The position numbers and the translations under genes were made by a program. Positions 22,278-61,987 of a stretch of 64,000 bases of DNA are shown here, one piece after another. Position 1 is the first letter of the stretch; the number at the start of each line of letters is the position of its first letter. The notes under the pieces were generated by a model, which was given only the letters and a program-made list of their open reading frames with translations, searched no databases and was not told where the DNA came from. Source of the DNA: a virus; the IMG/VR virus record IMGVR_UViG_3300025162_000046, positions 1 through 64,000 of that record; one strand, written 5' to 3'.

Positions 22278-23399
22278 ATGATTTTCCACCAAAATATTTC
22301 CCGCGATTTATTCTCCCAAAAGTATATGATAAACGGGGAAACCACCCCGGATCAGGTATTCCACGATATAGCAGTAGAAATCTCTCGACCCGAAAAACCC
22401 GGAATTCGCCTTAGAGTTCAAAATGAGTTTGAGTCGATTATGACCGAGGGTTACTTTATTCCTGGCGGCCGAATTTTGGCTAACGCACGCACTTACGGGC
22501 ATCTAAAATCGCGAAACTATAATAATTGCTTTACTATTAACATTGAAGATAACATGGAAGGCATCTATATGTCCGTGTATGAAGATGCCATGATCAGCCG
22601 TATGGGTGGTGGAGTGGGGTTCAATGTATCTAAATTGAGACCCAAGGGAAGCAAAACTACCAATGGCGGCGAAGCATCAGGCCCCGTCTCTTTCCTTCGT
22701 GTGTTCGACGCATCCGCCAAAACCATAAGCAGCGGTGGGGCACGGCGCTCAGCGCATATTGCTCTTCTGGATATTTCTCACCCGGACATCGAAGAGTTCA
22801 TTACCGTCAAGCAAGGGGACAAAGATAAAAAACTTTCTCAATTCAACATCTCTGTAATCATCACCGATGCTTTTATGAAGGCGGTGAGTGAAGATGCTGA
22901 TTGGGATTTGGTATTCGAAGGAAAAGTTTACAGAACTCTAAAAGCCCGAAAATTATACGAGACACTCGCTAAGAATGCCTATGAGCACAACGACCCGGGC
23001 GTTTTCTTTGTTGACACCGTTCAACGAGATAATAATGCTTGGTGGGCATTTGTTATGGATGCGTGTAATCCCTGCGTCGCAGGAGCGACTCAGGTAGAAT
23101 TCAGAATCGGAGACAGTCCCCCTCACAGTATCGCCATACAGGACCTAGCAGAAATCTACAAGGGGCTAAAATCTGGTCAGTACATCTACGTAAAGTCCTA
23201 CGATGAGAAGACCCAACAAGTTGTTTGGAAGATGTTGCAAGGAGCAAACCTCACTAAGAAGGACACTGAGCTGCTTCAGATCACCGATACAGAAACTGGG
23301 AAGGTTATTCGCTGCACCCCGGATCATAAGATTCTTACGAAGCGAGGTTGGGTCGAGGCTCAGGCTCTCGAGGCTGATGACCAGATTATCCAGGCGTAA
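22278..23399 (+). CDS. nrdJ: Class II ribonucleotide reductase, N-part fused to N-intein
   Basis: 373 residues: 265 of reductase, then 108 of a split intein's N-half. The enzyme makes deoxynucleotides from ribonucleotides; class II uses adenosylcobalamin and one subunit. Reductase features include PGGRILANAR, NNCFTIN (first active-site Cys), GGGVGFNVSKLRPKG and SGGARRSAHIALLDISHPD. The host sequence stops after MDACNP, exactly before the Cys of the NPCGE active-site motif, and the reading continues CVAGATQVEF as intein. It ends with a normal stop after QIIQA. It cannot give active enzyme until trans-spliced to the product of 23650-25453. Confidence 0.9.
   Translation: MIFHQNISRDLFSQKYMINGETTPDQVFHDIAVEISRPEKPGIRLRVQNEFESIMTEGYFIPGGRILANARTYGHLKSRNYNNCFTINIEDNMEGIYMSVYEDAMISRMGGGVGFNVSKLRPKGSKTTNGGEASGPVSFLRVFDASAKTISSGGARRSAHIALLDISHPDIEEFITVKQGDKDKKLSQFNISVIITDAFMKAVSEDADWDLVFEGKVYRTLKARKLYETLAKNAYEHNDPGVFFVDTVQRDNNAWWAFVMDACNPCVAGATQVEFRIGDSPPHSIAIQDLAEIYKGLKSGQYIYVKSYDEKTQQVVWKMLQGANLTKKDTELLQITDTETGKVIRCTPDHKILTKRGWVEAQALEADDQIIQA
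23073..23396 (+). mobile_element. Split intein, N-terminal half (reductase)
   Basis: 108 residues starting with the catalytic Cys (CVAGATQVEF), with the B-block TxxH motif in RCTPDHKILTKRGW, and ending EADDQIIQA and stop. Length and ending match natural split-intein N-halves. Confidence 0.88.
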
Positions 23400-23496
23400 G
23401 CAACATCAACTCACAGAGATCAAGGGCTGCATCGAGAGAGGTATCCTCGGATCTAGCTTTCAGGAGATATCAATCGAAGCTCCAAAAGATGTGTGA
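23377..23496 (+). CDS. Small basic ORF inside the reductase break
   Basis: 39 codons, MTRLSRRKQHQLTEIKGCI onward. Starts 23 bases inside the end of the N-intein ORF and overlaps the next small ORF by 8 bases. It may be a DNA-binding remnant of a homing endonuclease or chance; supported only by the continuous chain of overlaps. Confidence 0.3.
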   Translation: MTRLSRRKQHQLTEIKGCIERGILGSSFQEISIEAPKDV

Positions 23497-23656
23497 GACT
23501 ATTATGAACCGGCAAGCAATAGGCTTTCCAGAATTAATAAGAGATATAGATAGGATAGTGAAAGAAGAAAAGGAGAGAGGCTTGATACCAAGAACGTTTG
23601 GATTGAGTAGACAGTCCATAGATAAATATAGAGTACGGGAGGTATTCGAGTGTTAA
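23489..23656 (+). CDS. Second small ORF inside the reductase break
   Basis: 55 codons, beginning MCETIMNRQAIGFPEL, with a helix-turn-helix-like end (RTFGLSRQSIDKYRV). It overlaps the preceding small ORF and the GTG start of the C-intein. Together the two could be what remains of an endonuclease gene that normally sits between split-intein halves. Confidence 0.35.
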   Translation: MCETIMNRQAIGFPELIRDIDRIVKEEKERGLIPRTFGLSRQSIDKYRVREVFEC

Positions 23657-23745
23657 CCATTGAGAAGGTTCGTAATGAAGATGTGTACGATCTATCCGTC
23701 GAAGGAACTCATAATTTCTTCGGCAATGGAATGGTTGTACATAAC
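23650..23745 (+). mobile_element. Split intein, C-terminal half (reductase)
   Basis: 32 residues (MLTIEKVRNEDVYDLSVEG, then THNFFGNGMVVHN) with classical F and G blocks and terminal His-Asn, followed by Cys as +1 residue. It has its own start codon and ribosome-binding site. Confidence 0.9.
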
Positions 23746-25453
23746 TGTGGTGGAATTTAGCGCCTCAGTATAATCACAGGGTGAATTGCTGGAAAGCTAA
23801 GCGGAAGTAAGCTAATCAGCAGCCAAGCGCGGTAGGGATACCGCGAAGGTTCAGAGACTAACAGCCGAGTCCAGATCGGACAGTAATGCTGACACGAGCG
23901 CCCTGCTCACGAAAGTGATGAAGATATAGTCCGATACTCCAGTGAAAATTGGAGAGCTATGATAAAGAGCATAGCAATAACAGATGGAAATTCCCATGCC
24001 CGCATATAGCCTCTGTTGCCTCGGTGCACTCAATCTAACAAAATTCATAATAGATCCCTTCACACCTGTTGCGCGTTTTCATTTTCAAAAAATGGCAGAG
24101 ATTGTGAAGACCGCCGTCAGGCTATTAGATAATACGCTTGACGCAACACAATACCCTCTTGAACGCATAGAGACTTTCTCAAAACAATGGCGCCGCATTG
24201 GTCTTGGTTTTACTGGCCTAGGTGATGCGCTTGCTATGCTTGGAATGAAGTATGGAGATGAGAGCAGTGTCGCGTTTTGCGAGATCTTTGGTCGTTCTCT
24301 TCGTGATGCTTCCTATCGAGCATCGGTTGAACTGGCGAAAGAGAAAGGTATGGCTCCTGGGCTTAAATCCGGCTTCTTCAAAAACAAACCTGATCCGCGC
24401 CTTACCTTAGGCGACTTCATTACCAAGATGCCGTTCGATCTTAGGAGAGATATTGGCAAATATGGCCTTCGCAACATAGGACTCAATACCGCAGCACCAA
24501 CCGGCACCATCTCTTTAACCGTTGGAAACAATTGCTCATCGGGGATTGAGCCGATCTTTGAGTATCAATTTACCCGTAATATTCGCACCGGAACCGGAGA
24601 TGAGACGAAGCCCGAGATAGTGCGTGACTACGCTTGTCTTATTTGGGAACAAAACCATCCCGGCGAGCCGCTTCCCACTTACTTTGTTACTGCGTTGGAG
24701 TTGGAGCCTCGCAAGGCGATTGATATCCAGGCGGCAATTCAAAAATATATAGATCATAGCATCTCAAAAACTTTTAATTTCGATGGTAAAAAATTGGGGT
24801 TTGAGGAATATAAAGATCTATTTACTTATGGTTATAAATCGGGCTTGAAGGGATATACTAGTTTTAATATTTCTGGTAGTATGAAAGGTGTTCTTGAATC
24901 AAGAGCACAGCCTAGTGAAGATAAACTAGATTCCTTTGTTCTTAGATCTAATGCTCCTAAACGCCCGAATGAACTGCCGTGCGACATACACTATGTCCAT
25001 GCTAACGGGCAGGACTTTATTGTTCTCGCTGGCCTACTCAACGGATCGATTTATGAGATTTTCGTTGATGAGCAGAATGGCCATGATTTCGGTTCTCTCA
25101 AATCCGGCAAGATCATCAAAAAAGGAAAAGGAGAGTATTCTCTCATAGACCCCGAAGGAAAAATGTTGGTTGAAGGGCTATCAAAAAACTTCAATGGAAC
25201 TTGGGGGTCTCTTGCGAGGATGATTTCTATGTCGTTGCGACACGGAGTTCCCCTCCAATTTATCATTGACCAGTTACAGCGCTCAAAAGAATTCTTGGGG
25301 TTTGAGAAGGCGGTATCTCGCGTGCTCAAACACTATATGAAAGAAGGCGAGGTATATGAATCGAAGGATAAATGTTCAAAATGTGGTGGTAAGCTAATAT
25401 TCCAAGAAGGCTGTTATGTTTGTAAATCGTGCGGCAATTCGGCCTGTACTTAG
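23650..25453 (+). CDS. nrdJ: C-intein plus class II ribonucleotide reductase C-part, with intron
   Basis: Starts at GTG 23650 with GGGAGG seven bases upstream: 32 residues of C-intein ending VVHN, then Cys-Gly, then a group I intron (23752-23986), then 488 residues of reductase. Without intron removal the frame ends after CGGI. Intron removal gives CGEIPMPAYSLCCLGALNL, so trans-splicing rebuilds NPCGEIPMP. The C-terminus has a zinc-ribbon-like CSKCGG...CYVCKSCG, as in NrdJ proteins. Mature reductase would be 265 + 490 = 755 residues. Expression thus needs both RNA and protein splicing. Confidence 0.9.
23752..23986 (+). ncRNA. Group I self-splicing intron in nrdJ
   Basis: 235-base intron without an ORF. 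The conserved core elements are readable in order: P (AATTGCTGGAAA, near 23784), Q (AATCAGCAGC, 23814-23823), R (GTTCAGAGACTA, 23849-23860) and S (AAGATATAGTCC, 23921-23932). The 5' exon ends in T (TGTGGT) and the intron ends in G (CAGATG), as the group I rule requires. The joined exons restore the Cys-Gly-Glu-Ile-Pro reading. ATCACAG (from about 23773) can pair with the 5' exon as guide sequence. Boundaries could shift by one base because a G is shared. Confidence 0.92.
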
Positions 25454-27995: not shown

Positions 27996-29012
27996 ATGGC
28001 CTTACACATTTTTGGAGATATACATTTTAGTTCCTTACAGCCCTGGAGGCTTTCGTTAGGGGACGCATTTTTGGATTGGTTTATGGCTTATCAGCCGGGC
28101 CCGCGAGAGCAAAATTCCTTTCTTTGCTTAGGAGATTACACTGATAGCGCGGTTTTACCGGGTGAAGAGGTAGCGCAACTTAAAAGATTTATCGATATCG
28201 CAAAAGGTAAATTCAAACAGATCTATTTACTCACTGGAAATCATGATTTAAAACTTTATAAAAATAAGCCTCAATTATCTTTTGAGTTCCTCAAATATGA
28301 AGAAGGGGTGATAATTCTGCGAGAACCTGCCGAAGTGCTTGATATAGAAGGAATACGCATCCTTTCTCTCCCCCATTATAACTATCGCACGGATATTCCT
28401 TCTATGTGGGAGCACTACGGAAATTTGCCTAAGGTTATTAGAGACCAACATTTCGATTTAGTTTGCGGCCACTTTTCGGACACATCAGCACAACTGTTTG
28501 ACCATACGATTGACATATCTTATCTTAAAACAAATTATATTGTGCTCGGACATCAGCATATCCGAGCATCATCTCATTACACTGGCTCATTGTTCCCCTG
28601 CAAGATAAGCGAGAATAATAGCCCTACGCCTCGTGCGATCTGGATTTTTGAAAAGAAAGATAACAAGGTAATCAAATGCGAGATTCCTTTACCTAAGTTT
28701 GGAGAATACCGCGTTGCGGAGTATCCTAAGCCACTACCCAAGACAGATGCTCAAATTACCATCTGGACCATATTAGGCTGTGAATCTGAGAAAATAGCCG
28801 CGGCTTTATATGGCGATATTTTTATCCGAGGCATCGCCGCGAACTTCATTAAAAAGAATAACAACATCATTGCATCAGATGACACCTTCGTGCTGGGAGA
28901 TCCTACAACAGTCTTCAACGAATGGATCAAAACCGCAAAAACCCCAGTAAGTCGTTCTGTCGCCGCTCTCGTTCGAAAAATGCTCGCTCCTTCGGCCCCT
29001 CCTACTAATTAG
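27996..29012 (+). CDS. SbcD/Mre11-like nuclease subunit (gp47-like)
   Basis: 338 residues. Metallophosphoesterase nuclease that works with the gp46/SbcC ATPase in end resection and recombination-dependent replication. Metal-binding motifs in order: FGDIHFS, LGDYTDS, TGNHDL, CGHFSD and LGHQHIR. Size matches T4 gp47 (339 residues). Its partner is encoded about 30 kb away (58393-61987), not adjacent. The final codons ACT AAT TAG form an ACTAATTA motif. No clear ribosome-binding site precedes the start. Confidence 0.88.
   Translation: MALHIFGDIHFSSLQPWRLSLGDAFLDWFMAYQPGPREQNSFLCLGDYTDSAVLPGEEVAQLKRFIDIAKGKFKQIYLLTGNHDLKLYKNKPQLSFEFLKYEEGVIILREPAEVLDIEGIRILSLPHYNYRTDIPSMWEHYGNLPKVIRDQHFDLVCGHFSDTSAQLFDHTIDISYLKTNYIVLGHQHIRASSHYTGSLFPCKISENNSPTPRAIWIFEKKDNKVIKCEIPLPKFGEYRVAEYPKPLPKTDAQITIWTILGCESEKIAAALYGDIFIRGIAANFIKKNNNIIASDDTFVLGDPTTVFNEWIKTAKTPVSRSVAALVRKMLAPSAPPTN
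29004..29011 (+). promoter_or_regulatory. ACTAATTA motif forming the gp47-like gene's end
   Basis: Encodes the last Thr-Asn and most of the stop; the next ATG begins two bases later (29014). Confidence 0.45.
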
Positions 29013-30338: not shown

Positions 30339-31112
30339 ATGTTTGGAATTATCTATAAGGCTACTTGTGTGGCAAATGGTAAAGTCTATGTGGGGCAAAC
30401 TATTGTTTCTTTACAAAGTAGACAAAGAGATCATTTTTATGAGGCAGCCAGAGGTGAAGATTCTTACTTTTGTCGGGCGCTTCGTAAATATGGTAAAGAC
30501 TATTTCGTGTGGGAACAAATAGATGGTGCTGAAACTATAGAAGAGTTGAATCAAAAAGAAATCTACTGGATTGCGTTTTATAGATGTTTTGAAGATCCTG
30601 CCAAAGGATACAATAGTGACTCCGGTGGAAAAAATGCTAAATCGTCAGAAGAAACTAAAAAGAAAATTGGAGACGCCCTACGGGGTAAGAAAAAGAATAT
30701 AACTCCGGAGGGTTTTCTTAAAAAACAAGAAGTATGTAGAAATCGAGTTTGGTCACAAGAATCAAAAGATAAACTTTCTATAGCCCGCATAGGACAAAAA
30801 TCCTCCTCCGAAACTATAGAAAAAATTAAAAAGGCTAATACAGGTAAAACTCGATCGCCTGAAGCCAAACAACATTATGTTGAAAGATGGACTGAGGAAG
30901 AACGGCAAAAAAGAAGAGAAAAGTATACGGGAGAAAATAATCCTAACTATGGAAAACATTTATCAAAAGAATCTCGACTAAGTATAAGTGAAAAGGCTAA
31001 GGCCCGTGGTGGCCGCACTCAGACAGATGAAGAAAGAAAGAAGAGATCTGATAGTATTCGTGCTTGGCACGCTAAGAGAAAACAACTTCTTTTAGAGCAA
31101 AGCACTAATTAG
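30339..31112 (+). CDS. GIY-YIG homing endonuclease with NUMOD3 repeats
   Basis: 257 residues. GIIYKATCVANGKVYVGQT is a textbook GIY-YIG opening, followed by the conserved Arg (SRQRDHFYEA) and Glu (LNQKEIYWIAFY). The C-terminal half repeats NUMOD3-type DNA-binding segments (SSEETKKKIGDALRGKK, SQESKDKLSIARIGQK, SSETIEKIKKANTGK, SKESRLSISEKAK). Resembles T4 Seg proteins. Inserted between two tail genes; its last codons ACT AAT TAG form an ACTAATTA motif. Confidence 0.9.
   Translation: MFGIIYKATCVANGKVYVGQTIVSLQSRQRDHFYEAARGEDSYFCRALRKYGKDYFVWEQIDGAETIEELNQKEIYWIAFYRCFEDPAKGYNSDSGGKNAKSSEETKKKIGDALRGKKKNITPEGFLKKQEVCRNRVWSQESKDKLSIARIGQKSSSETIEKIKKANTGKTRSPEAKQHYVERWTEEERQKRREKYTGENNPNYGKHLSKESRLSISEKAKARGGRTQTDEERKKRSDSIRAWHAKRKQLLLEQSTN
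31104..31111 (+). promoter_or_regulatory. ACTAATTA motif before the tail sheath gene
   Basis: Overlaps the endonuclease stop; the sheath GTG start (31139) lies 27 bases downstream. Confidence 0.55.
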
Positions 31113-33845: not shown

Positions 33846-35072
33846 ATGGACCATTATATTTATGTTTATCTTGATCCCCGAGAGTCTGGGCAATATGTTT
33901 ATGGAAATTTGCAATTTGATTATGAACCTTTCTATGTAGGAAAGGGTAAAGAAGATAGAGACACCCAGCATCTTCGAGATTTGTTTCACCTGGGGGGCCG
34001 AAAAAATACTTGCAAAGATAATAAATTAAAGGCAATAATACAACAAGGAAAAGCCCCTATTATTCTCCGATTAATAGAGAATCTGACAGATGATGAGGCC
34101 TGCGCGAAAGAAATAGAGATGATAGCATTAATAGGGCGGTCATGTGAAAAAACAGGCCCACTTACGAATTTACACAAGGGGGGCACAGGGGGATCTCAGC
34201 CGGAAGAGATTCGGAAACAAACGGGGCTCAAAATATCTCAGCGCTGGGCCGAAGGAGCCTACAAGAATAAAGTAGAAACTCCAATGACCGACGAACAAAA
34301 AGAAAAGATTCGTCAAGCGCATTTAGGGATGAAAGAAGATCCCGAGATTACTAAAAAAAGAGTCGCTGCTCGCGCGGGGTATAAGCACTCCGAAGAAACG
34401 AAACAGCACATTCGGGAAGGACAAAAAGTAGAACTTGCTAAACGTAATACAAAACAAAGTTGGGAAAACCCGGAGATTAGGAAAAAAAGATTAGAGGGAA
34501 TCAAGGATAGCTGGGAAAAGAAAAAGGGCATCAAACGTCTATGGATAAACAATGGAGAGCAGAGTGGGTGTTATGAAGAACAGAACGCTAAAAAACTTCT
34601 TGAGCAAGGATGGATCAAGGGTCGATTACCCGTATTTTCACTACTACAAGGCCGTATACCCTCCGAAAAAACAAAACAAAAAATGAGAGAGACTGCGGCT
34701 CAACCCGAGAAAAAAGCAAAAAGGATAGAAAATTCTAAAAAGAATTGGGAATCGGAAGAATACAGAAAGCAACGATTGCAAACTCTACAAGAAACTTGCG
34801 CCACTCGCACTCTTCGAAAAAAAGTTTGGATACATACCGCAGAAGAAACGATTATGGTATATCAGGATGAGTTAGATAATTACCTAAATGAGGGGTATCA
34901 AGAAGGCCGCGGAGAGTCACTAAAAAAACGAGGCAGACAAGGAAAATCTTATTGGGTAAACAATGGAACTGAATCCAAAATGCTGCGAGAAGATAAAGCA
35001 TTAGAACTCCTTGAACAAGATTGGGTTAAAGGTCGTCTATCGATCAAGAAAGACAAAAAATGGGCCCACTAA
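33846..35072 (+). CDS. GIY-YIG homing endonuclease with WINNG-type repeats
   Basis: 408 residues. GIY-YIG domain: YIYVYLDPRESG, EPFYVGKGKEDRDTQHLRD and the Glu in CAKEIEMIALIG. The middle carries NUMOD3-like segments. The C-terminal part has repeated modules of the form [V/L]WINNG...LLEQGWIKGR (around 235, 330 and 375), probably DNA-binding. It resembles the gene at 3938 in its first 60 residues and has the same hairpin start, so the genes probably share origin. Located between sheath and tube genes; its stop TAA is within an ACTAATTA motif. Confidence 0.88.
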   Translation: MDHYIYVYLDPRESGQYVYGNLQFDYEPFYVGKGKEDRDTQHLRDLFHLGGRKNTCKDNKLKAIIQQGKAPIILRLIENLTDDEACAKEIEMIALIGRSCEKTGPLTNLHKGGTGGSQPEEIRKQTGLKISQRWAEGAYKNKVETPMTDEQKEKIRQAHLGMKEDPEITKKRVAARAGYKHSEETKQHIREGQKVELAKRNTKQSWENPEIRKKRLEGIKDSWEKKKGIKRLWINNGEQSGCYEEQNAKKLLEQGWIKGRLPVFSLLQGRIPSEKTKQKMRETAAQPEKKAKRIENSKKNWESEEYRKQRLQTLQETCATRTLRKKVWIHTAEETIMVYQDELDNYLNEGYQEGRGESLKKRGRQGKSYWVNNGTESKMLREDKALELLEQDWVKGRLSIKKDKKWAH

Positions 35073-54978: not shown

Positions 54979-56631
54979 ATGTCTAAAGATATGTTATATG
55001 GAGAGGACGCAAGAAAAAAGCTGATGTCGGGAATTACCAAACTTTCAGAAGCCGTTTCAACTACTTTAGGACCTCGCGGTCGCAATGTTATTATCACGCG
55101 CCAATTCGGTTCGCCCCTTATTACTAAGGATGGCGTGACGGTAGCAAAGGAAATCGATCTTAAAGATCCCTATGAAAATATGGGCGCACAGCTTATTAAA
55201 GAAGCCGCGACCAGAACAAATACCCAAGCAGGTGATGGGACCACTACAGCAACTGTGCTCGCATATGCCATTGCTAAAGAAGGCATAAAAATGGTAGCGA
55301 CGGGGTATGATCCTATCTCTATCAAGAGAGGTATCGATGAAGGCGTGAGAGTCGCACTTGCCGCACTCGACAATATCAAACGAGATGTCAAAACCAAAGA
55401 AGACATTCTCAACATAGCCACAATCTCCGCGAATGGAGATACTGAAGTGGGTCAGCAAATCGCCGATGCCATGGAGCATGTTGGTAATGATGGCGTCGTG
55501 ACGGTTGAAGAATCCCGCACCATGAATACCTATGTGGATTATGTAGAAGGCATGCAACTTGACCGTGGATATATGTCGCCGTATTTTGCTACGGATGAGC
55601 ATATGAATTGCACTCTCGAAGCGCCCTACATTCTTGTAACTAATAAGACCATTTCCAATCTTCAAAGCATAGTTCCTCTACTCACAATGCTTCAGCGAGC
55701 AGATAGACCTTTGCTCATCATTGCGGATAATGTTGAGGGTTCGGCTATGCAAGCCCTTATTATCAATAGTATGAAGGGCGTTCTCAAATCCTGCGCTATT
55801 CGAAGTCCCGGGTATGGTGAACATCGATTTGAATTCCTTAAGGATATTGCAATTCTCACTGGCGCTACTTATGTCGATGAAGGGGCGGGAATGGAGTTTG
55901 CAACTCTCTCCCTGGAAAGCCTTGGTCAGGCGGGTAAAGTAAAAATCACAGCGCAGAGCACTACTATTATCGAGGGCGCAGGAACACCAGAGGCGCTGGC
56001 AGGTCGAGTAGATCAGCTTCGTATGCTTCTTAATGAATCATCGTCCGATTATGAGAAAGAGAAGTATCAAGAGCGTATCGCTAAACTCGCTGGTGGCGTA
56101 GCTATTATCAATGTCGGAGCAAACTCCGAAGTTGAGATGAAAGAGAAGAAGCACAGAGTTGAAGACGCTCTCTCAGCTACTCGCGCCGCTCTTGAAGAAG
56201 GTATTGTTCCTGGCGGTGGACTGTCCCTCGTCTACGCAGCAACACAAATGAACAATCTGAAAGCCCCTCAGGGATGGACAGAGGCTCATGCCGCTGGTTA
56301 TCGAATCGTGCAAAAAGCCCTCGAAGAACCGATGCGCAAGATAGCGGATAACGCCGGGGTAAGCGGTGATGTTGTTGTTGGTAAGGTTCTTGAAACTTTC
56401 GAAGCAAATAACACGCTTCTTAAAAAAATTGATTCTTACTATCAGGGGTATAACGCAGCCTCGGGCGAATGGGTTGACATGTATGTGGCGGGAGTCATCG
56501 ACCCTGTCAAAGTCACACGGTCAGCATTGCAGAACGCGGGCTCGGTAGCAGGAATGCTCTTGACTACTGAGTGTGCTATTGTAGATCTTCCTGAGCCGCA
56601 GCAGCCAATGCCCCAGATGCCAGAGATGTAA
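54979..56631 (+). CDS. groEL: GroEL-type chaperonin
   Basis: 550 residues, full length for group I chaperonins. Folds proteins inside a double ring using ATP. Hallmarks: TTLGPRGRNVII, DGVTVAKEIDL, AGDGTTTATVLA (ATP site), GMQLDRGYMSPYFATD, KKHRVEDALSATRAALEEG and VPGGGLSLVYAA. The C-terminus ends PQQPMPQMPEM instead of the usual Gly-Gly-Met repeats. No GroES-like gene follows, so it must use the host co-chaperonin, another phage gene outside the window, or none. Phage GroELs are known from some large phages. Confidence 0.95.
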   Translation: MSKDMLYGEDARKKLMSGITKLSEAVSTTLGPRGRNVIITRQFGSPLITKDGVTVAKEIDLKDPYENMGAQLIKEAATRTNTQAGDGTTTATVLAYAIAKEGIKMVATGYDPISIKRGIDEGVRVALAALDNIKRDVKTKEDILNIATISANGDTEVGQQIADAMEHVGNDGVVTVEESRTMNTYVDYVEGMQLDRGYMSPYFATDEHMNCTLEAPYILVTNKTISNLQSIVPLLTMLQRADRPLLIIADNVEGSAMQALIINSMKGVLKSCAIRSPGYGEHRFEFLKDIAILTGATYVDEGAGMEFATLSLESLGQAGKVKITAQSTTIIEGAGTPEALAGRVDQLRMLLNESSSDYEKEKYQERIAKLAGGVAIINVGANSEVEMKEKKHRVEDALSATRAALEEGIVPGGGLSLVYAATQMNNLKAPQGWTEAHAAGYRIVQKALEEPMRKIADNAGVSGDVVVGKVLETFEANNTLLKKIDSYYQGYNAASGEWVDMYVAGVIDPVKVTRSALQNAGSVAGMLLTTECAIVDLPEPQQPMPQMPEM

Positions 56632-58392: not shown

Positions 58393-58818
58393 ATGATTAC
58401 TCTAAACAGTTTGACTATCAAAAACTTTATCTGCGTTGAGTCCGCCGATTTCGATTTTATCAACAACTATATCACAGTTTTCTTTGGGGCGAATGGTAGC
58501 GGCAAATGCATCGAAGGCTCTACAAGAATCAAAACCAAACAATTCGGGGAACTCCCAATTAAAGAACTTTTTAAGAAATTGGAAGTTTCACCTTCTGTTA
58601 AAATGGCTCTTCCCAAAGAAGGACTTGAAGTTTGGACTGATGAGGGGTGGAAATCCATTGAGGCATTCTGGATCACCCCGCCCGAGCCTTTGTGGGAACT
58701 GGAATTAGATGATGGTATAGTTCTGCGAGCCAGTGCAGACCATCGTGTAATGACGCAGCGCGGCTGGGTGAAGCTAAAGGATCTCCAGGAATCAGATGAG
58801 ATTCTGCGGGAAGAATGA
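58393..58818 (+). CDS. SbcC/Rad50-like ATPase N-part fused to N-intein
   Basis: 141 residues: 38 of the ATPase, then a 103-residue split-intein N-half. The host part has the Rad50-type opening ITLNSLTIKNFICVESADF and Walker A FFGANGSGK. The next residue is the intein's catalytic Cys (CIEGSTRIKT). The frame ends ESDEILREE and stop. Trans-splicing to the product of 59918-61987 restores GSGKSSIFEAI, a perfect ABC-type P-loop. Until spliced, neither half can bind ATP. Confidence 0.9.
   Translation: MITLNSLTIKNFICVESADFDFINNYITVFFGANGSGKCIEGSTRIKTKQFGELPIKELFKKLEVSPSVKMALPKEGLEVWTDEGWKSIEAFWITPPEPLWELELDDGIVLRASADHRVMTQRGWVKLKDLQESDEILREE
58507..58815 (+). mobile_element. Split intein, N-terminal half (SbcC/gp46)
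   Basis: 103 residues starting CIEGSTRIKTKQFGELPI, with a B-block-like RASADHRVMTQRGWVKL, ending in a stop. The same style of ending as the reductase N-intein. Confidence 0.88.
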
Positions 58819-58839
58819 CAATCTATCCGGATACTCCCT

Positions 58840-58847
58840 ACTAATTA
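58840..58847 (+). promoter_or_regulatory. ACTAATTA motif before the inserted endonuclease gene
   Basis: Lies between the N-intein stop and ATG 58864, giving the inserted endonuclease its own candidate promoter. Confidence 0.55.
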
Positions 58848-58863
58848 ATTCAGGGGATTTATC

Positions 58864-59970
58864 ATGGATTTACAAACTCTTGCAAAAAATCTTTATGGTG
58901 AGGATTATTCTTTATGGCAACTCGGTTCGTTGAGGCGACAACTACAAAAAAAGAAAATAACCGAAGTTGATATTACTTGGAGAGAAGAAGAAAATGGTTT
59001 CGGCGCTTGGGATATGATTCATGGTATCCCTTTATCTTGTAATACTTATTGGCATAGCTATGCTTGCACTTCTTGTGGTAAAAAAATTATTGATATAGAT
59101 CGAAATCATAAACGCCGGGCTAATCCTACCCTTTGCGGGCATTGCAGCAAATCAAAAACTTTAACAGAAGTGAATCGAAATTCCAATAAAGTAAAAAACG
59201 CAGAGATTTTTGCTGACCCTCTTCTAGGCTCTATTCGGAAAGAAAAACTAAGAGAAAATAGGATTCGAATAAACCAAACTGTGATGGCAGATTTTATTCG
59301 AAACTTGTCGCCGGAGAGAAAAGAACAAATAGCCATTCAGAAGAAACAAACTTGGGGGGCTCGTCCAGTAGAGGAAAAAAAGGAAATCAATAAAACTCGC
59401 AATGGCTATCTTTATAAAAGTGAAAAGGAGATACAAGAACGAGTACAAAGAGGGGTAGAGACTAAGAAAAAAAACTTAGCTAAACTGTCCTCGGAAGAGA
59501 TCCGACAAAAAACCTTAGAGAGGGTGGCAAAAATGAAAGCTACCATTCGATCTAAACCTAAAGACCTGAGGTTTAATCACCCTGAGCGTAGATATGTAAA
59601 GGGGAAGCAAGGTGAGGTAGGGGGTGTTTATTTTCAATCATCTTACGAAGAAGCCGTATTACAGTTTTGTTGCATGAAAATGTATAAGATACAAAGAGGG
59701 CCGGCACTTGAATACTATAATCCAATAGGAAAAAGTATTTCTCTTTATTTTGTGGACTTTTTGATAAACGATACTCTTTTAGTAGAGATAAAAAGTAATT
59801 ATACTTGGGATCAAAATATAGAAATCAATAAGGCGAAAGAAAGATGCGCTCAGTCGTATGCACAAGAACAAGGGTTGACCTATCTGACGCTTATATTATC
59901 CAAGGAGGATATCAAGGATGTCAACAAGATTCTCGAAAATACGTTCAATAAAGAATTTAGAGAGAACTGA
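58864..59970 (+). CDS. Homing endonuclease inserted in a fractured gene, PD-(D/E)XK-like
   Basis: 368 residues, located between the two halves of the SbcC-like gene. N-terminal zinc-binding pairs: CTSCGKKIID and LCGHCSKSK (about 60-98). A basic middle with NUMOD-like repeats (SPERKEQIAIQKKQTWGA, SSEEIRQKTLERVAKMK). The C-terminal nuclease (about 255-360) shows FQSSYEEAVLQF, then YFVDFLINDTLLVEIKSNY, matching D...E-x-K catalysis. Neither GIY-YIG nor classical HNH. It overlaps the start of the C-part by 53 bases. Endonuclease genes between split-intein halves are known from 'fractured' genes. Confidence 0.75.
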   Translation: MDLQTLAKNLYGEDYSLWQLGSLRRQLQKKKITEVDITWREEENGFGAWDMIHGIPLSCNTYWHSYACTSCGKKIIDIDRNHKRRANPTLCGHCSKSKTLTEVNRNSNKVKNAEIFADPLLGSIRKEKLRENRIRINQTVMADFIRNLSPERKEQIAIQKKQTWGARPVEEKKEINKTRNGYLYKSEKEIQERVQRGVETKKKNLAKLSSEEIRQKTLERVAKMKATIRSKPKDLRFNHPERRYVKGKQGEVGGVYFQSSYEEAVLQFCCMKMYKIQRGPALEYYNPIGKSISLYFVDFLINDTLLVEIKSNYTWDQNIEINKAKERCAQSYAQEQGLTYLTLILSKEDIKDVNKILENTFNKEFREN

Positions 59971-60037
59971 AAATTGCTATGATATTCAGGTCGCAGATAT
60001 TCAGCGGTACTTCTCTAATGGAATTGTAAGCCATAAT
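59918..60037 (+). mobile_element. Split intein, C-terminal half (SbcC/gp46)
   Basis: 40 residues with F block CYDIQVADIQRYFSNGI and terminal SHN, followed by Ser as +1 residue. It has an independent start and ribosome-binding site. Confidence 0.9.
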
Positions 60038-61987
60038 TCTAGTATTTTTGAGGCCATCGCCTTATGCTGGACAGAGCGCAGGAGAGGCGACTCCTATAAG
60101 GATTTCATCAAGCACGGGACTGATTCTGCAGAGATTCACCTTGTTGCCAGTATTCACGGCGAACCCATTCAATTCGATGTGGAGATTCGTGATAAGAAAG
60201 GGGCGACTCCTTTTCAACGAACTATCACTTATAAAAAAGAGAAGTATGTAAATTCAGAGTGCACTACGCTTCTCACCTCCTTCGATATTGATTATCTCCA
60301 ACACATTATGTTCTCTATGCAAGGTGAGAATAACATTACTGATCTCAAACCCTCCGAAAGAACTAAACTTCTCAAGCGTATTTTCAATTTCGAGTTTGAA
60401 TCTCAATTGAGCCAACTTGATAAATTGGTTGAACAAGAAGAACAGAACAGCCTCGTGCTCAAAACTCGCGTTGATGTTTTATCTCATATGAAATTTGAAT
60501 ATGAGCAAGCGGAGCAAACCCTTACTCTCGACAAGCGCAGCGAAATAGAAAATCGCATTACCGAGATCGATGAAATCATAAGAGTGCAAGAACAAAATCA
60601 ACTTCTTCAATCCGAAACTTCTCATCGACTCGAAAGTCTCCGCGCCCAAGGTCAAGCTGCGTCAGCACGCAAGCATTCTATCGAAAAAGATATCAGTGAC
60701 CTTAATAGTTCGTATACTCGACTACTCGGGGATAAGAATCGACATAGTCAAGCATTACTTACTCTCCCCGATTCCGTGAAACTCGAAGAAGAAATCAAAG
60801 AGAAAACCGCGGCAATTGAATCGTTCAAGATTCTCGTGGAGCAAAATCGTCTTCTTATTCAAGAGAAGGAAAACAATCTCGGATCTCGTCAAAGCCGTAT
60901 CCTTGAACTTAGGAATCACATCGTAGCACATAAGCAAGGCATTTGTCCTCAGTGTGGGCAAGACACTCATCCTGAAACCGTTCCTGAACTTGAGACCTCT
61001 TTGGAATCAGTTGAACAATTGTATGAGGAGCTCCTCTCACAAAAAATGATGCTTGAGACCGCTGAGAAAGGTGCCGAGAGAAACATCTCCACCTATCAGG
61101 CGGCAATACCTAATCTTAGAGAAAAAATCAAATCGTCTGCGGATATGAAAATCCAGTTTGAGAGCATTTTCAAAACCATCGAAGAAAGCACCCAGCAAAC
61201 AAACGGAACCATTGAAATTCGAAAATCCACTTTGTTGGAAGTCGAGAATCAGATCAAAGAACTCGAACAGCAAATTGAAGAGATCTCTCCTAAATTGGTT
61301 CGAATGATTCCTACCACATCTCTTCTCAGTGAGAAGAGTGGGTTAGCTAATCAGGTTCAGAGGCATCTTGCTGTCATCGCTCGCAACGAAGTAATTGAGC
61401 GTAAAAATATAGAGATGAAACAAAAAGAAGAAGGGAACAAACAACTACTGATAGACCTCAACCGGCAACAAAACGATTTGCTGCTATCGACGAATAATTA
61501 TAAAGACGCGAAGCGCATATTGGAAGTAGACCTACCCAATTATATCATTGTCAAAGCGTGCTCAAAACTTGAAAAACATATCAATCATTTTATCTCTGAG
61601 GTCAAGGAAGGGATGGTAGTTAGGCTATTCCAAGCGCGCTCGGGAGTTGAATTTTTCTATTCCCCAGTAGGAGAAGTAGCAAATTCTGAAGATTGGACCT
61701 CTACAAAAATGGCATCGGGATTTGAACGGGAATTGCTATCAGCCGCGTGGAGAGTAGCGTTAGCAAGGGCTTATAATCTACACGCGCTTATGCTTGATGA
61801 GGTGGATAGCGCGGCTAACACCTTCTCATCTGAAAAAATGTTTAGAGAGATCGCTAATCTCACCGGCTTTGAGCAGCTCTTCATAGTGAGTCACAAGCCT
61901 GAAGTAGTCGATATTTTATTACAGGAAAATGAGAGAGTGACCGCGTATTTCGTCCAAGATGGTATCTTTACTCGTCAAGAATACTAA
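59918..61987 (+). CDS. C-intein plus SbcC/Rad50-like ATPase C-part (gp46-like)
   Basis: 689 residues: 40 of C-intein ending GIVSHN, then 649 of ATPase. AAGGAGG lies nine bases before ATG 59918, inside the endonuclease gene. The ATPase starts SSIFEAIALCW (end of the P-loop), has long coiled coils (about 165-530) broken by a zinc hook CPQCGQDTHP (about 350), the signature region ASGFERELLSAAWRVAL and Walker B HALMLDEVDSA. Mature length would be 687 residues. Partners the gp47-like nuclease at 27996-29012 in recombination and end processing. Confidence 0.92.
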   Translation: MSTRFSKIRSIKNLERTENCYDIQVADIQRYFSNGIVSHNSSIFEAIALCWTERRRGDSYKDFIKHGTDSAEIHLVASIHGEPIQFDVEIRDKKGATPFQRTITYKKEKYVNSECTTLLTSFDIDYLQHIMFSMQGENNITDLKPSERTKLLKRIFNFEFESQLSQLDKLVEQEEQNSLVLKTRVDVLSHMKFEYEQAEQTLTLDKRSEIENRITEIDEIIRVQEQNQLLQSETSHRLESLRAQGQAASARKHSIEKDISDLNSSYTRLLGDKNRHSQALLTLPDSVKLEEEIKEKTAAIESFKILVEQNRLLIQEKENNLGSRQSRILELRNHIVAHKQGICPQCGQDTHPETVPELETSLESVEQLYEELLSQKMMLETAEKGAERNISTYQAAIPNLREKIKSSADMKIQFESIFKTIEESTQQTNGTIEIRKSTLLEVENQIKELEQQIEEISPKLVRMIPTTSLLSEKSGLANQVQRHLAVIARNEVIERKNIEMKQKEEGNKQLLIDLNRQQNDLLLSTNNYKDAKRILEVDLPNYIIVKACSKLEKHINHFISEVKEGMVVRLFQARSGVEFFYSPVGEVANSEDWTSTKMASGFERELLSAAWRVALARAYNLHALMLDEVDSAANTFSSEKMFREIANLTGFEQLFIVSHKPEVVDILLQENERVTAYFVQDGIFTRQEY

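What the first reader, a model, noticed from the sequence alone, without database searches (positions are those of the whole stretch)
58393..61987. gp46/SbcC-like ATPase fractured by a split intein with an endonuclease gene between the halves
Seen: GANGSGK is followed directly by an intein Cys; 1.1 kb later a C-intein ends SHN followed by SSIFEAIALCW. Joining gives GSGKSSIFEAI. A 368-residue PD-(D/E)XK-like endonuclease gene with its own ACTAATTA motif lies between and overlaps the C-part start by 53 bases. Known: this matches the layout reported for fractured genes with split inteins. The P-loop cannot form until trans-splicing, so the recombination ATPase is made only when both halves are present.
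Basis: partly seen in the sequence, partly recalled or inferred. Interest (0 to 1): 0.9.

Follow-up and report, generated by a model that had tools for sequence, protein, structure and literature searches.

The report
Split-intein-fractured phage gp46 (Rad50-like) gene
A virus of bacteria carries its Rad50-like DNA-repair ATPase gene in two pieces, cut exactly inside the ATP-binding loop by a split self-splicing protein element with a DNA-cutting gene lodged between the halves; this is a new case of a known arrangement, and the same cut site turns out to be hit repeatedly in other phages and cells.

Summary
A gp46/SbcC-type (Rad50-like) ATPase gene is broken between the Lys and Ser of its Walker A motif (GANGSGK|SSIFEAI) by a canonically split class 1 intein (103 + 40 aa). 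A 368-aa endonuclease gene lies between the halves; it overlaps the C-half by 53 nt and holds that half's ribosome-binding site.

The joined intein matches the NrdJ-1 split intein structure end to end; the joined exteins match Rad50. The 73.8-kb record has no second gp46, and the locus no RNA intron. The endonuclease has a TnsA-like PD-(D/E)XK domain; relatives are free-standing phage homing endonucleases and the gene inside the equally fractured uvsW of Salmonella phage S16. So this is a new member of the known 'fractured gene' class.

New here: the gp46 P-loop is a recurrent intein site. Other metagenomic phages carry contiguous mini-inteins, or inteins split after about 28 aa, at the same codon; none was found among 50,697 annotated phage records. 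Cellular SMC-superfamily P-loops hold contiguous inteins at the homologous site. The window's nrdJ is also fractured by a second split intein, with a group I intron 6 nt beyond it. Splicing and cleavage remain untested.

The parts
58393..58506 (+). N-extein of gp46/Rad50-like ATPase (38 aa), ending in Walker A GANGSGK
   Evidence: PF13476 27.5 bits on residues 6-38; phrog_77
58507..58815 (+). N-intein, 103 aa, Cys1 (block A), SADH (block B); stop 58816-58818
   Evidence: TIGR01445 25.4 bits, above cut-off; PF14890; NrdJ-1 structure match
58840..58847 (+). ACTAATTA promoter-like/leader motif 16-17 nt before the endonuclease start
   Evidence: 19 in window vs 2.57 expected; positional test
58864..59970 (+). 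free-standing putative homing endonuclease, 368 aa: N-terminal zinc ribbon, C-terminal TnsA-like PD-(D/E)XK domain (E262, D298, E308, K310); second lowest GC and GC3 of 48 genes
   Evidence: PF08722 E 1.5e-5 on the C-terminal domain; relatives L043, L051; AlphaFold2 pLDDT 84.8 and Foldseek 3r3p/1f1z prob 0.95/0.96; composition
59902..59908 (+). Shine-Dalgarno AAGGAGG of the C-half, inside the endonuclease reading frame
59918..60037 (+). C-intein, 40 aa, block F (CYDIQVADIQRYFSNG) and block G (SHN)
   Evidence: PF14890 21.3 bits; TIGR01443 15.4 bits vs cut-off 15.6; NrdJ-1 match
60038..61987 (+). C-extein of gp46/Rad50-like ATPase (649 aa): Ser+1, zinc-hook CPQCG, SGFERE signature, Walker B LMLDEVD, H-loop VSHK
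   Evidence: phrog_77 E 1.5e-17; Rad50 structures
27996..29012 (+). gp47/Mre11-like metallophosphoesterase, the expected nuclease partner of gp46, about 29 kb away
   Evidence: PF00149 41.5 bits, above cut-off

Best explanation
This is a fractured gene. The phage's gp46 (Rad50/SbcC-type) ATPase is encoded as two separate proteins. Each carries half of a class 1 intein that folds on association, ligates the exteins (Lys38 to Ser39) and so builds the Walker A loop; unspliced, neither half has a complete P-loop. The gene between the halves is a free-standing homing endonuclease of the TnsA-like PD-(D/E)XK kind. It most likely cuts the uninterrupted gp46 P-loop sequence of co-infecting relatives, so that repair copies the intein-endonuclease unit into them. 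The endonuclease has its own promoter-like motif and contains the C-half's Shine-Dalgarno and first codons, so it cannot be deleted cleanly without losing the C-half. Shown: anatomy, homology, motifs, single copy in the record. Inferred: trans-splicing, cleavage specificity, homing, and the coupling.
For: Intein and extein matches. All class 1 residues are present and there is no frameshift. The two halves are in different frames (offset 1), with in-frame stops after the N-half, so cis read-through is excluded. No second gp46 in the record, partner gp47 present. No group I/II intron at the locus, while the same Rfam search finds the nrdJ intron at E 1.3e-17. The nuclease family is shared with free-standing phage NUMOD3 homing endonucleases L043 and L051 and with the middle gene of the S16 uvsW fracture (hhalign prob 96.6, E 6.5e-10). 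Fold resembles homing endonuclease I-Bth0305I and TnsA. Same-site inteins exist in other gp46 genes as contiguous, split and split-plus-middle-gene forms. A second assembly is identical.
Against: No splicing or cleavage data. The same-site gp46 inteins are distant (28-37% identity), so selection on the intein could not be measured. The 3r3p and TnsA fold hits have modest E-values (0.025-0.055). The record is a linear fragment, so a second gp46 outside it is possible. The catalytic-domain model rests on three sequences.
Confidence: 0.86

Rival explanations
1. Decayed locus: the intein halves no longer splice, gp46 is lost, and the phage relies on host SbcCD/Rad50 or does without it.
For: The endonuclease is compositionally atypical, so invasion may be recent; no splicing data exist; block B has Ser instead of Thr (SADH).
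Against: All three frames are intact over 3.6 kb with complete motifs, a strong Shine-Dalgarno for the C-half and an intact gp47 partner. Block F/G and +1 Ser are intact. T4-like gp46 relatives split at another point also keep intact halves.
Confidence: 0.07
2. The two halves work as a non-covalent complex without splicing, as described for the NrdA pieces of Aeromonas phage Aeh1.
For: Gene pieces that function without splicing are known (PMC3653736).
Against: Here both pieces carry matching intein halves with all catalytic residues, and the break is inside Walker A, where about 143 extra residues would sit in the nucleotide pocket.
Confidence: 0.02
3. The 1.1-kb insert is removed at the RNA level (an intron with a homing endonuclease gene inside an intein gene), restoring a contiguous cis-intein.
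For: A true group I intron lies in nrdJ of the same genome.
Against: No intron model matches 58-62 kb in the same search that finds the nrdJ intron at E 1.3e-17. The endonuclease ORF leaves only about 45 nt upstream and overlaps the C-intein, so there is no room for an intron core. The C-half has its own start and Shine-Dalgarno.
Confidence: 0.02
4. The fracture is real and splices, but the endonuclease no longer homes: it is a passenger, or has been kept because it carries the C-half's translation start, or for interference with rival phages.
For: In related split gp46 loci the middle gene is absent (L072, L074) or only a 58-aa finger ORF (L066), so it is dispensable for splicing. The Shine-Dalgarno lies inside it.
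Against: E262, D298, E308 and K310 are conserved with relatives and the frame is full length.
Confidence: 0.2

Closest known systems
Fractured genes with natural split inteins (Dassa et al. 2009, doi 10.1093/nar/gkp095; paper not held, known here from citations and memory)
   Same: Host gene in two ORFs, split intein at the canonical endonuclease insertion point, free-standing endonuclease gene between, phage DNA-metabolism host protein
   Different: Host protein is gp46/Rad50-like, which I could not find reported; nuclease is TnsA-like with an E-I-K motif rather than EDxHD/Vsr-like
uvsW of Salmonella phage S16 (NC_020416, L061)
   Same: N-half + N-intein (97 aa), TnsA-like endonuclease of the same family with zinc-finger cysteines, C-half + C-intein (44 aa), endonuclease overlapping the C-half start (65 nt); closest intein to the window's by BLAST score
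   Different: Host protein is the UvsW helicase, inserted at the DEAH box, +1 Cys; annotated only as two helicases and a hypothetical protein
AceL NrdHF split intein (PMC7891396)
   Same: Phage-like contig, fractured-gene organisation with an endonuclease between; 98 + 48 aa split at the canonical point; trans-splicing shown
   Different: Class 3 intein in nrdHF with a GIY-YIG endonuclease
NrdJ-1 split intein (PDB 8ubs)
   Same: Best solved-structure match across both halves, E 6.8e-10
   Different: Host gene nrdJ; intein about 30% identical
T4-like gp46 P-loop inteins in IMG/VR (L063/L066/L073, L067, L069, L071, L072, L074; found here)
   Same: Same host gene and same Lys|Ser codon boundary
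   Different: Contiguous mini-inteins, or split after 27-29 aa with a 122-124 aa C-part; form their own clade (95/91), the window's intein falls outside it but one clade is not rejected (p-AU 0.289)
I-Bth0305I (EDxHD homing endonuclease) and TnsA
   Same: Predicted fold of the nuclease domain (Foldseek prob 0.95 and 0.96)
   Different: Active-site letters differ from EDxHD; the rest of the window protein (zinc ribbon, helical linker) is not in TnsA

Membership tests
Fractured gene with split intein | Conserved gene broken into two ORFs that together restore the protein | tested here: met
   687-aa join matches Rad50 and phrog_77 in both parts
Fractured gene with split intein | N-intein at the end of the first ORF, C-intein at the start of the second | tested here: met
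   TIGR01445 above cut-off; TIGR01443 15.4 vs 15.6 bits (just below) but NrdJ-1 structure matched over both halves
Fractured gene with split intein | Free-standing endonuclease gene between the halves | tested here: met
   58864-59970, own start, different frame from the C-half
Fractured gene with split intein | Trans-splicing of the two products | not testable with these tools
   needs co-expression
Class 1 intein | Cys/Ser at position 1, block B His, block G His-Asn, +1 Cys/Ser/Thr | tested here: met
   Cys1, SADH, SHN, +1 Ser in alignment of 16 inteins
gp46/Rad50/SbcC ATPase | Walker A, Q-loop, zinc hook, signature, Walker B, H-loop after joining, and a gp47/Mre11 partner | tested here: met
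   GANGSGKSS, QGE, CPQCG, SGFERE (non-consensus), LMLDEVD, VSHK read; partner 27996-29012
PD-(D/E)XK (TnsA-like) homing endonuclease | Fold and E..D..ExK catalytic set | tested here: met
   PF08722 E 1.5e-5 (25.9 bits, just under the 26.5 cut-off; relatives score above it), E262/D298/E308/K310 invariant in three sequences, fold search
PD-(D/E)XK (TnsA-like) homing endonuclease | Cleaves the allele lacking the element | not testable with these tools
   needs cleavage assay
EDxHD (Vsr-like, I-Bth0305I) homing endonuclease | EDxHD active-site motif | tested here: not met
   The window protein has VDFLINDTLLVEIKS, no HD after the strand; only the fold is similar
Group I/II intron with internal endonuclease gene | Intron core around the endonuclease gene | tested here: not met
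   Rfam search of 21.8-64 kb finds only the nrdJ intron

The most novel reading that the evidence does not exclude
The split intein plus TnsA-like endonuclease is one mobile cassette that has fractured unrelated phage recombination genes (S16 uvsW, this gp46). It independently re-invaded a P-loop site that other gp46 inteins had already colonised, and it is locked in place because the endonuclease gene supplies the translation start of the C-half. By breaking gp46 it would put the phage's own break-repair ATPase, a possible helper of homing, under the control of the element.
Probability: 0.2. Interest if true: 0.7.

Novelty: new member of a known kind. Interest (0 to 1): 0.52.

Why it matters
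It adds the phage Rad50/SbcC-type ATPase to the proteins that are fractured by split inteins. It also turns up a natural series at a single codon: contiguous mini-intein, split without a middle gene, split with an endonuclease, at two different fracture points. That makes the open question of how split inteins and fractured genes arise directly testable. Two unlike split inteins in one phage (gp46 and nrdJ) also give a natural pair for orthogonality tests and protein-ligation tools.

Tried and rejected
Single-sequence AlphaFold2 of the whole endonuclease failed (pLDDT 40); the C-terminal domain with two relatives worked. Close relatives of the C-half or endonuclease in IMG/VR: only the same virus. 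A narrow intein-junction pattern found only the same virus; the looser one found the other gp46 inteins. Endonuclease tblastn in annotated phages: no match at 0.01, mostly weak head-completion nucleases at 10; genome contigs: none confirmed. L026 looked like a truncated gp46 but is a GC-rich, unrelated ATPase with no intein seen. Literature terms for gp46/Rad50/SbcC inteins gave nothing relevant; the Dassa 2009 paper is not held, so whether gp46 is among its host genes is unchecked.
Full report
OBSERVATION. The three ORFs are 58393-58818 (141 aa), 58864-59970 (368 aa) and 59918-61987 (689 aa). The N-half reads MITLNSLTIKNF...FFGANGSGK and continues at Cys39 into 103 residues of N-intein. The C-half starts with a 40-residue C-intein ending SHN, followed by SSIFEAIALCW; the join is 687 aa. 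The endonuclease overlaps the C-half by 53 nt. The C-half's Shine-Dalgarno AAGGAGG (59902-59908) is inside the endonuclease frame.

WHAT THE HALVES ARE. NCBIfam intein_Nterm scores 25.4 bits against a cut-off of 24.5; intein_Cterm just misses its cut-off (15.4 vs 15.6). The joined 143-aa intein matches the solved NrdJ-1 split intein over residues 2-142 at E 6.8e-10 and many other HINT structures. Cys1, a block B His (SADH), SHN and +1 Ser are all present in an alignment of 16 inteins, which is the residue set of a class 1 intein. The joined exteins match Rad50 structures (best E 1.8e-7) and phrog_77, SbcC-like, at 1.5e-17 for the C-half. The cut falls between Lys and Ser of Walker A. The zinc hook CPQCG, the SGFERE signature, Walker B and the H-loop are all in the C-half (read).

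SINGLE COPY AND CONTEXT. The window lies in a 73,815-bp linear virus record. PF13476 and phrog_77 hit only these two halves. A gp47/Mre11-like phosphoesterase is at 27996-29012. A second assembly (G001, 40.5 kb) matches at 99.98-100% and is identical across the locus. It is the same virus population, so it argues against misassembly but adds no evolutionary evidence. No close relative was found for the ATPase; full-length or long matches are about 20-30% identical.

ALTERNATIVES TO PROTEIN SPLICING. The C-half is in a different frame from the N-half (offset 1), and two in-frame stops lie between N-half and endonuclease, so cis read-through cannot make an intein. A permissive Rfam search of 21.8-64 kb finds one intron only, in nrdJ at E 1.3e-17, which serves as a positive control; nothing is found near 58-62 kb.

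THE ENDONUCLEASE. Its C-terminal domain matches TnsA-like N (PF08722, E 1.5e-5, 25.9 bits against a 26.5 cut-off) and PDDEXK_3 weakly. Two IMG/VR relatives (L043, 34%; L051, 39% over the domain) are free-standing phage genes with NUMOD3 and PF08722 above cut-off. E262, D298, E308 and K310 are invariant. AlphaFold2 on the domain with these relatives gives pLDDT 84.8. Foldseek ranks the I-Bth0305I homing endonuclease (prob 0.95, E 0.025) and TnsA (prob 0.96, E 0.055) at the top, and phage NUMOD3/TnsA proteins in the viral library at E about 5e-7. The EDxHD letters are absent, so I do not file it in the EDxHD family. The gene has the second lowest GC and GC3 of 48 genes (0.366, 0.321), in keeping with separate arrival (inference).

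A NAMED PRECEDENT. Salmonella phage S16 uvsW has the same plan: N-half with 97-aa N-intein, a 291-aa gene with zinc-finger cysteines, NUMOD3 (just below cut-off) and TnsA-like domains, and a C-half with 44-aa C-intein overlapping that gene by 65 nt. Its nuclease aligns with ours at hhalign prob 96.6, E 6.5e-10. Of all inteins compared, the S16 one gives the highest BLAST score to the window's gp46 intein. Yersinia phage TG1 nrdA (HNH endonuclease between) and Campylobacter CP20 nrdA are similar. AceL NrdHF is a published fractured gene with proven trans-splicing (PMC7891396). The founding paper (Dassa et al. 2009) is not held; that layout claim rests on its title as cited and on memory.

THE SITE IS RECURRENT. 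A pattern for GxNGxGK|C..G in IMG/VR returned, besides this virus, eight contigs with inteins at exactly this codon of T4-like gp46. L067 and L069 are contiguous mini-inteins of 142 and 147 aa. L063/L066/L073 (near-identical), L071, L072 and L074 are split after only 27-29 aa, with C-parts of 122-124 aa. L071 has a 432-aa gene between the halves, with SSYE..YDFLVN..IEIA, related only marginally to ours (hhalign prob 56). L066 has a 58-aa finger ORF there, and L072 and L074 have nothing. So the gene has been fractured at two different points of the intein, which implies at least two fracture events. In a tree the T4-like gp46 inteins form one clade (95/91). The window's intein falls outside, near NrdJ-1, S16 uvsW and CP20 nrdA, but support is weak (81/86) and a single gp46 clade is not rejected (p-AU 0.289). 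Separate invasion is therefore suggested, not shown. In the annotated phage collection 494 records match an intein-bearing T4-like gp46 query; the listed ones are uninterrupted, and a query with the intein alone hits only terminase inteins. In 84,980 cellular species a stricter pattern hit 80 loci. At least 53 of them are contiguous inteins (165-618 aa) at the homologous P-loop codon of SMC-superfamily genes, mostly SMC; one further SbcC-like case (L084) was seen by eye. The insertion site is thus a hot spot across the superfamily. What is unusual in the phages is the splitting.

OVERLAP OF THE MIDDLE GENE WITH THE C-HALF. It occurs in window gp46 (53 nt), window nrdJ (7), S16 uvsW (65), TG1 nrdA (14), L071 gp46 (4) and L066 gp46 (17), but not in CP20 nrdA. 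Where a Shine-Dalgarno is recognisable in these overlapping cases (window gp46, window nrdJ, weakly L071) it lies inside the middle gene. A clean deletion of the endonuclease would then remove the C-half's start, which could explain its retention. This is inference from a small sample.

A SECOND FRACTURED GENE IN THE SAME WINDOW. nrdJ (class II RNR, TIGR02504) is broken at 23073 by another split intein (108 aa N-part, about 32 aa C-part from GTG 23650, +1 Cys at 23746). A group I intron (RF00028, 75.8 bits) begins about 6 nt after the intein; the mature protein would read CNP|CG^EIPMPAY. The phage therefore encodes two different split inteins (26% identical) that should not cross-react.

VERDICT. 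Observation confirmed, interpretation supported, new member of a known kind. Confidence is 0.86 in the anatomy and trans-splicing reading as a whole, lower (about 0.75) for active homing.

Noticed in passing
window 22278-25453: nrdJ is broken by a second natural split intein (N-part 22278-23399, C-intein 23650-23745) and, about 6 nt after the intein, by a group I intron (RF00028, 23742-23954); a 55-aa ORF (23489-23656) sits between the intein halves.
   Followed up: partly
window, 19 sites (e.g. 4726, 25582, 48242, 53922, 58840, 61983): ACTAATTA is a phage-specific motif: 19 vs 2.6 expected, 15 of 19 within 60 nt upstream of a same-strand ORF start, often about 16 nt before the start codon; some copies sit in terminator-like hairpins (3689, 3915, 33816). 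Likely a promoter element.
   Followed up: partly
window 30339-31112, 33846-35072; G000 67674-68483 (L002:7674-8483): Further homing-endonuclease-like genes: GIY-YIG + NUMOD3 (30339), LEM-3-like GIY-YIG (33846), and GIY-YIG + NUMOD3 between a DnaC-like loader and DnaB. The first has the lowest GC3 of 48 genes.
   Followed up: partly
L063, L066, L071, L072, L073, L074 (IMG/VR): T4-like gp46 genes split within the intein after only 27-29 residues, an atypical natural split with a very short N-part; L071 carries a 432-aa gene between the halves.
   Followed up: partly
L080-L159 (GTDB genomes): At least 53 bacterial and archaeal SMC-superfamily genes carry contiguous inteins at the P-loop Lys|Ser codon, many of about 530-560 aa; one further case is SbcC-like (L084).
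   Followed up: partly
window 54979-56631: Phage-encoded GroEL chaperonin (phrog_5725, E 2.8e-162).
   Followed up: no
L007:2002-4602 (Thermus phage phiLo): A single 866-aa protein that appears to fuse an N-terminal Mre11/gp47-like region to a Rad50/gp46-like ATPase.
   Followed up: no
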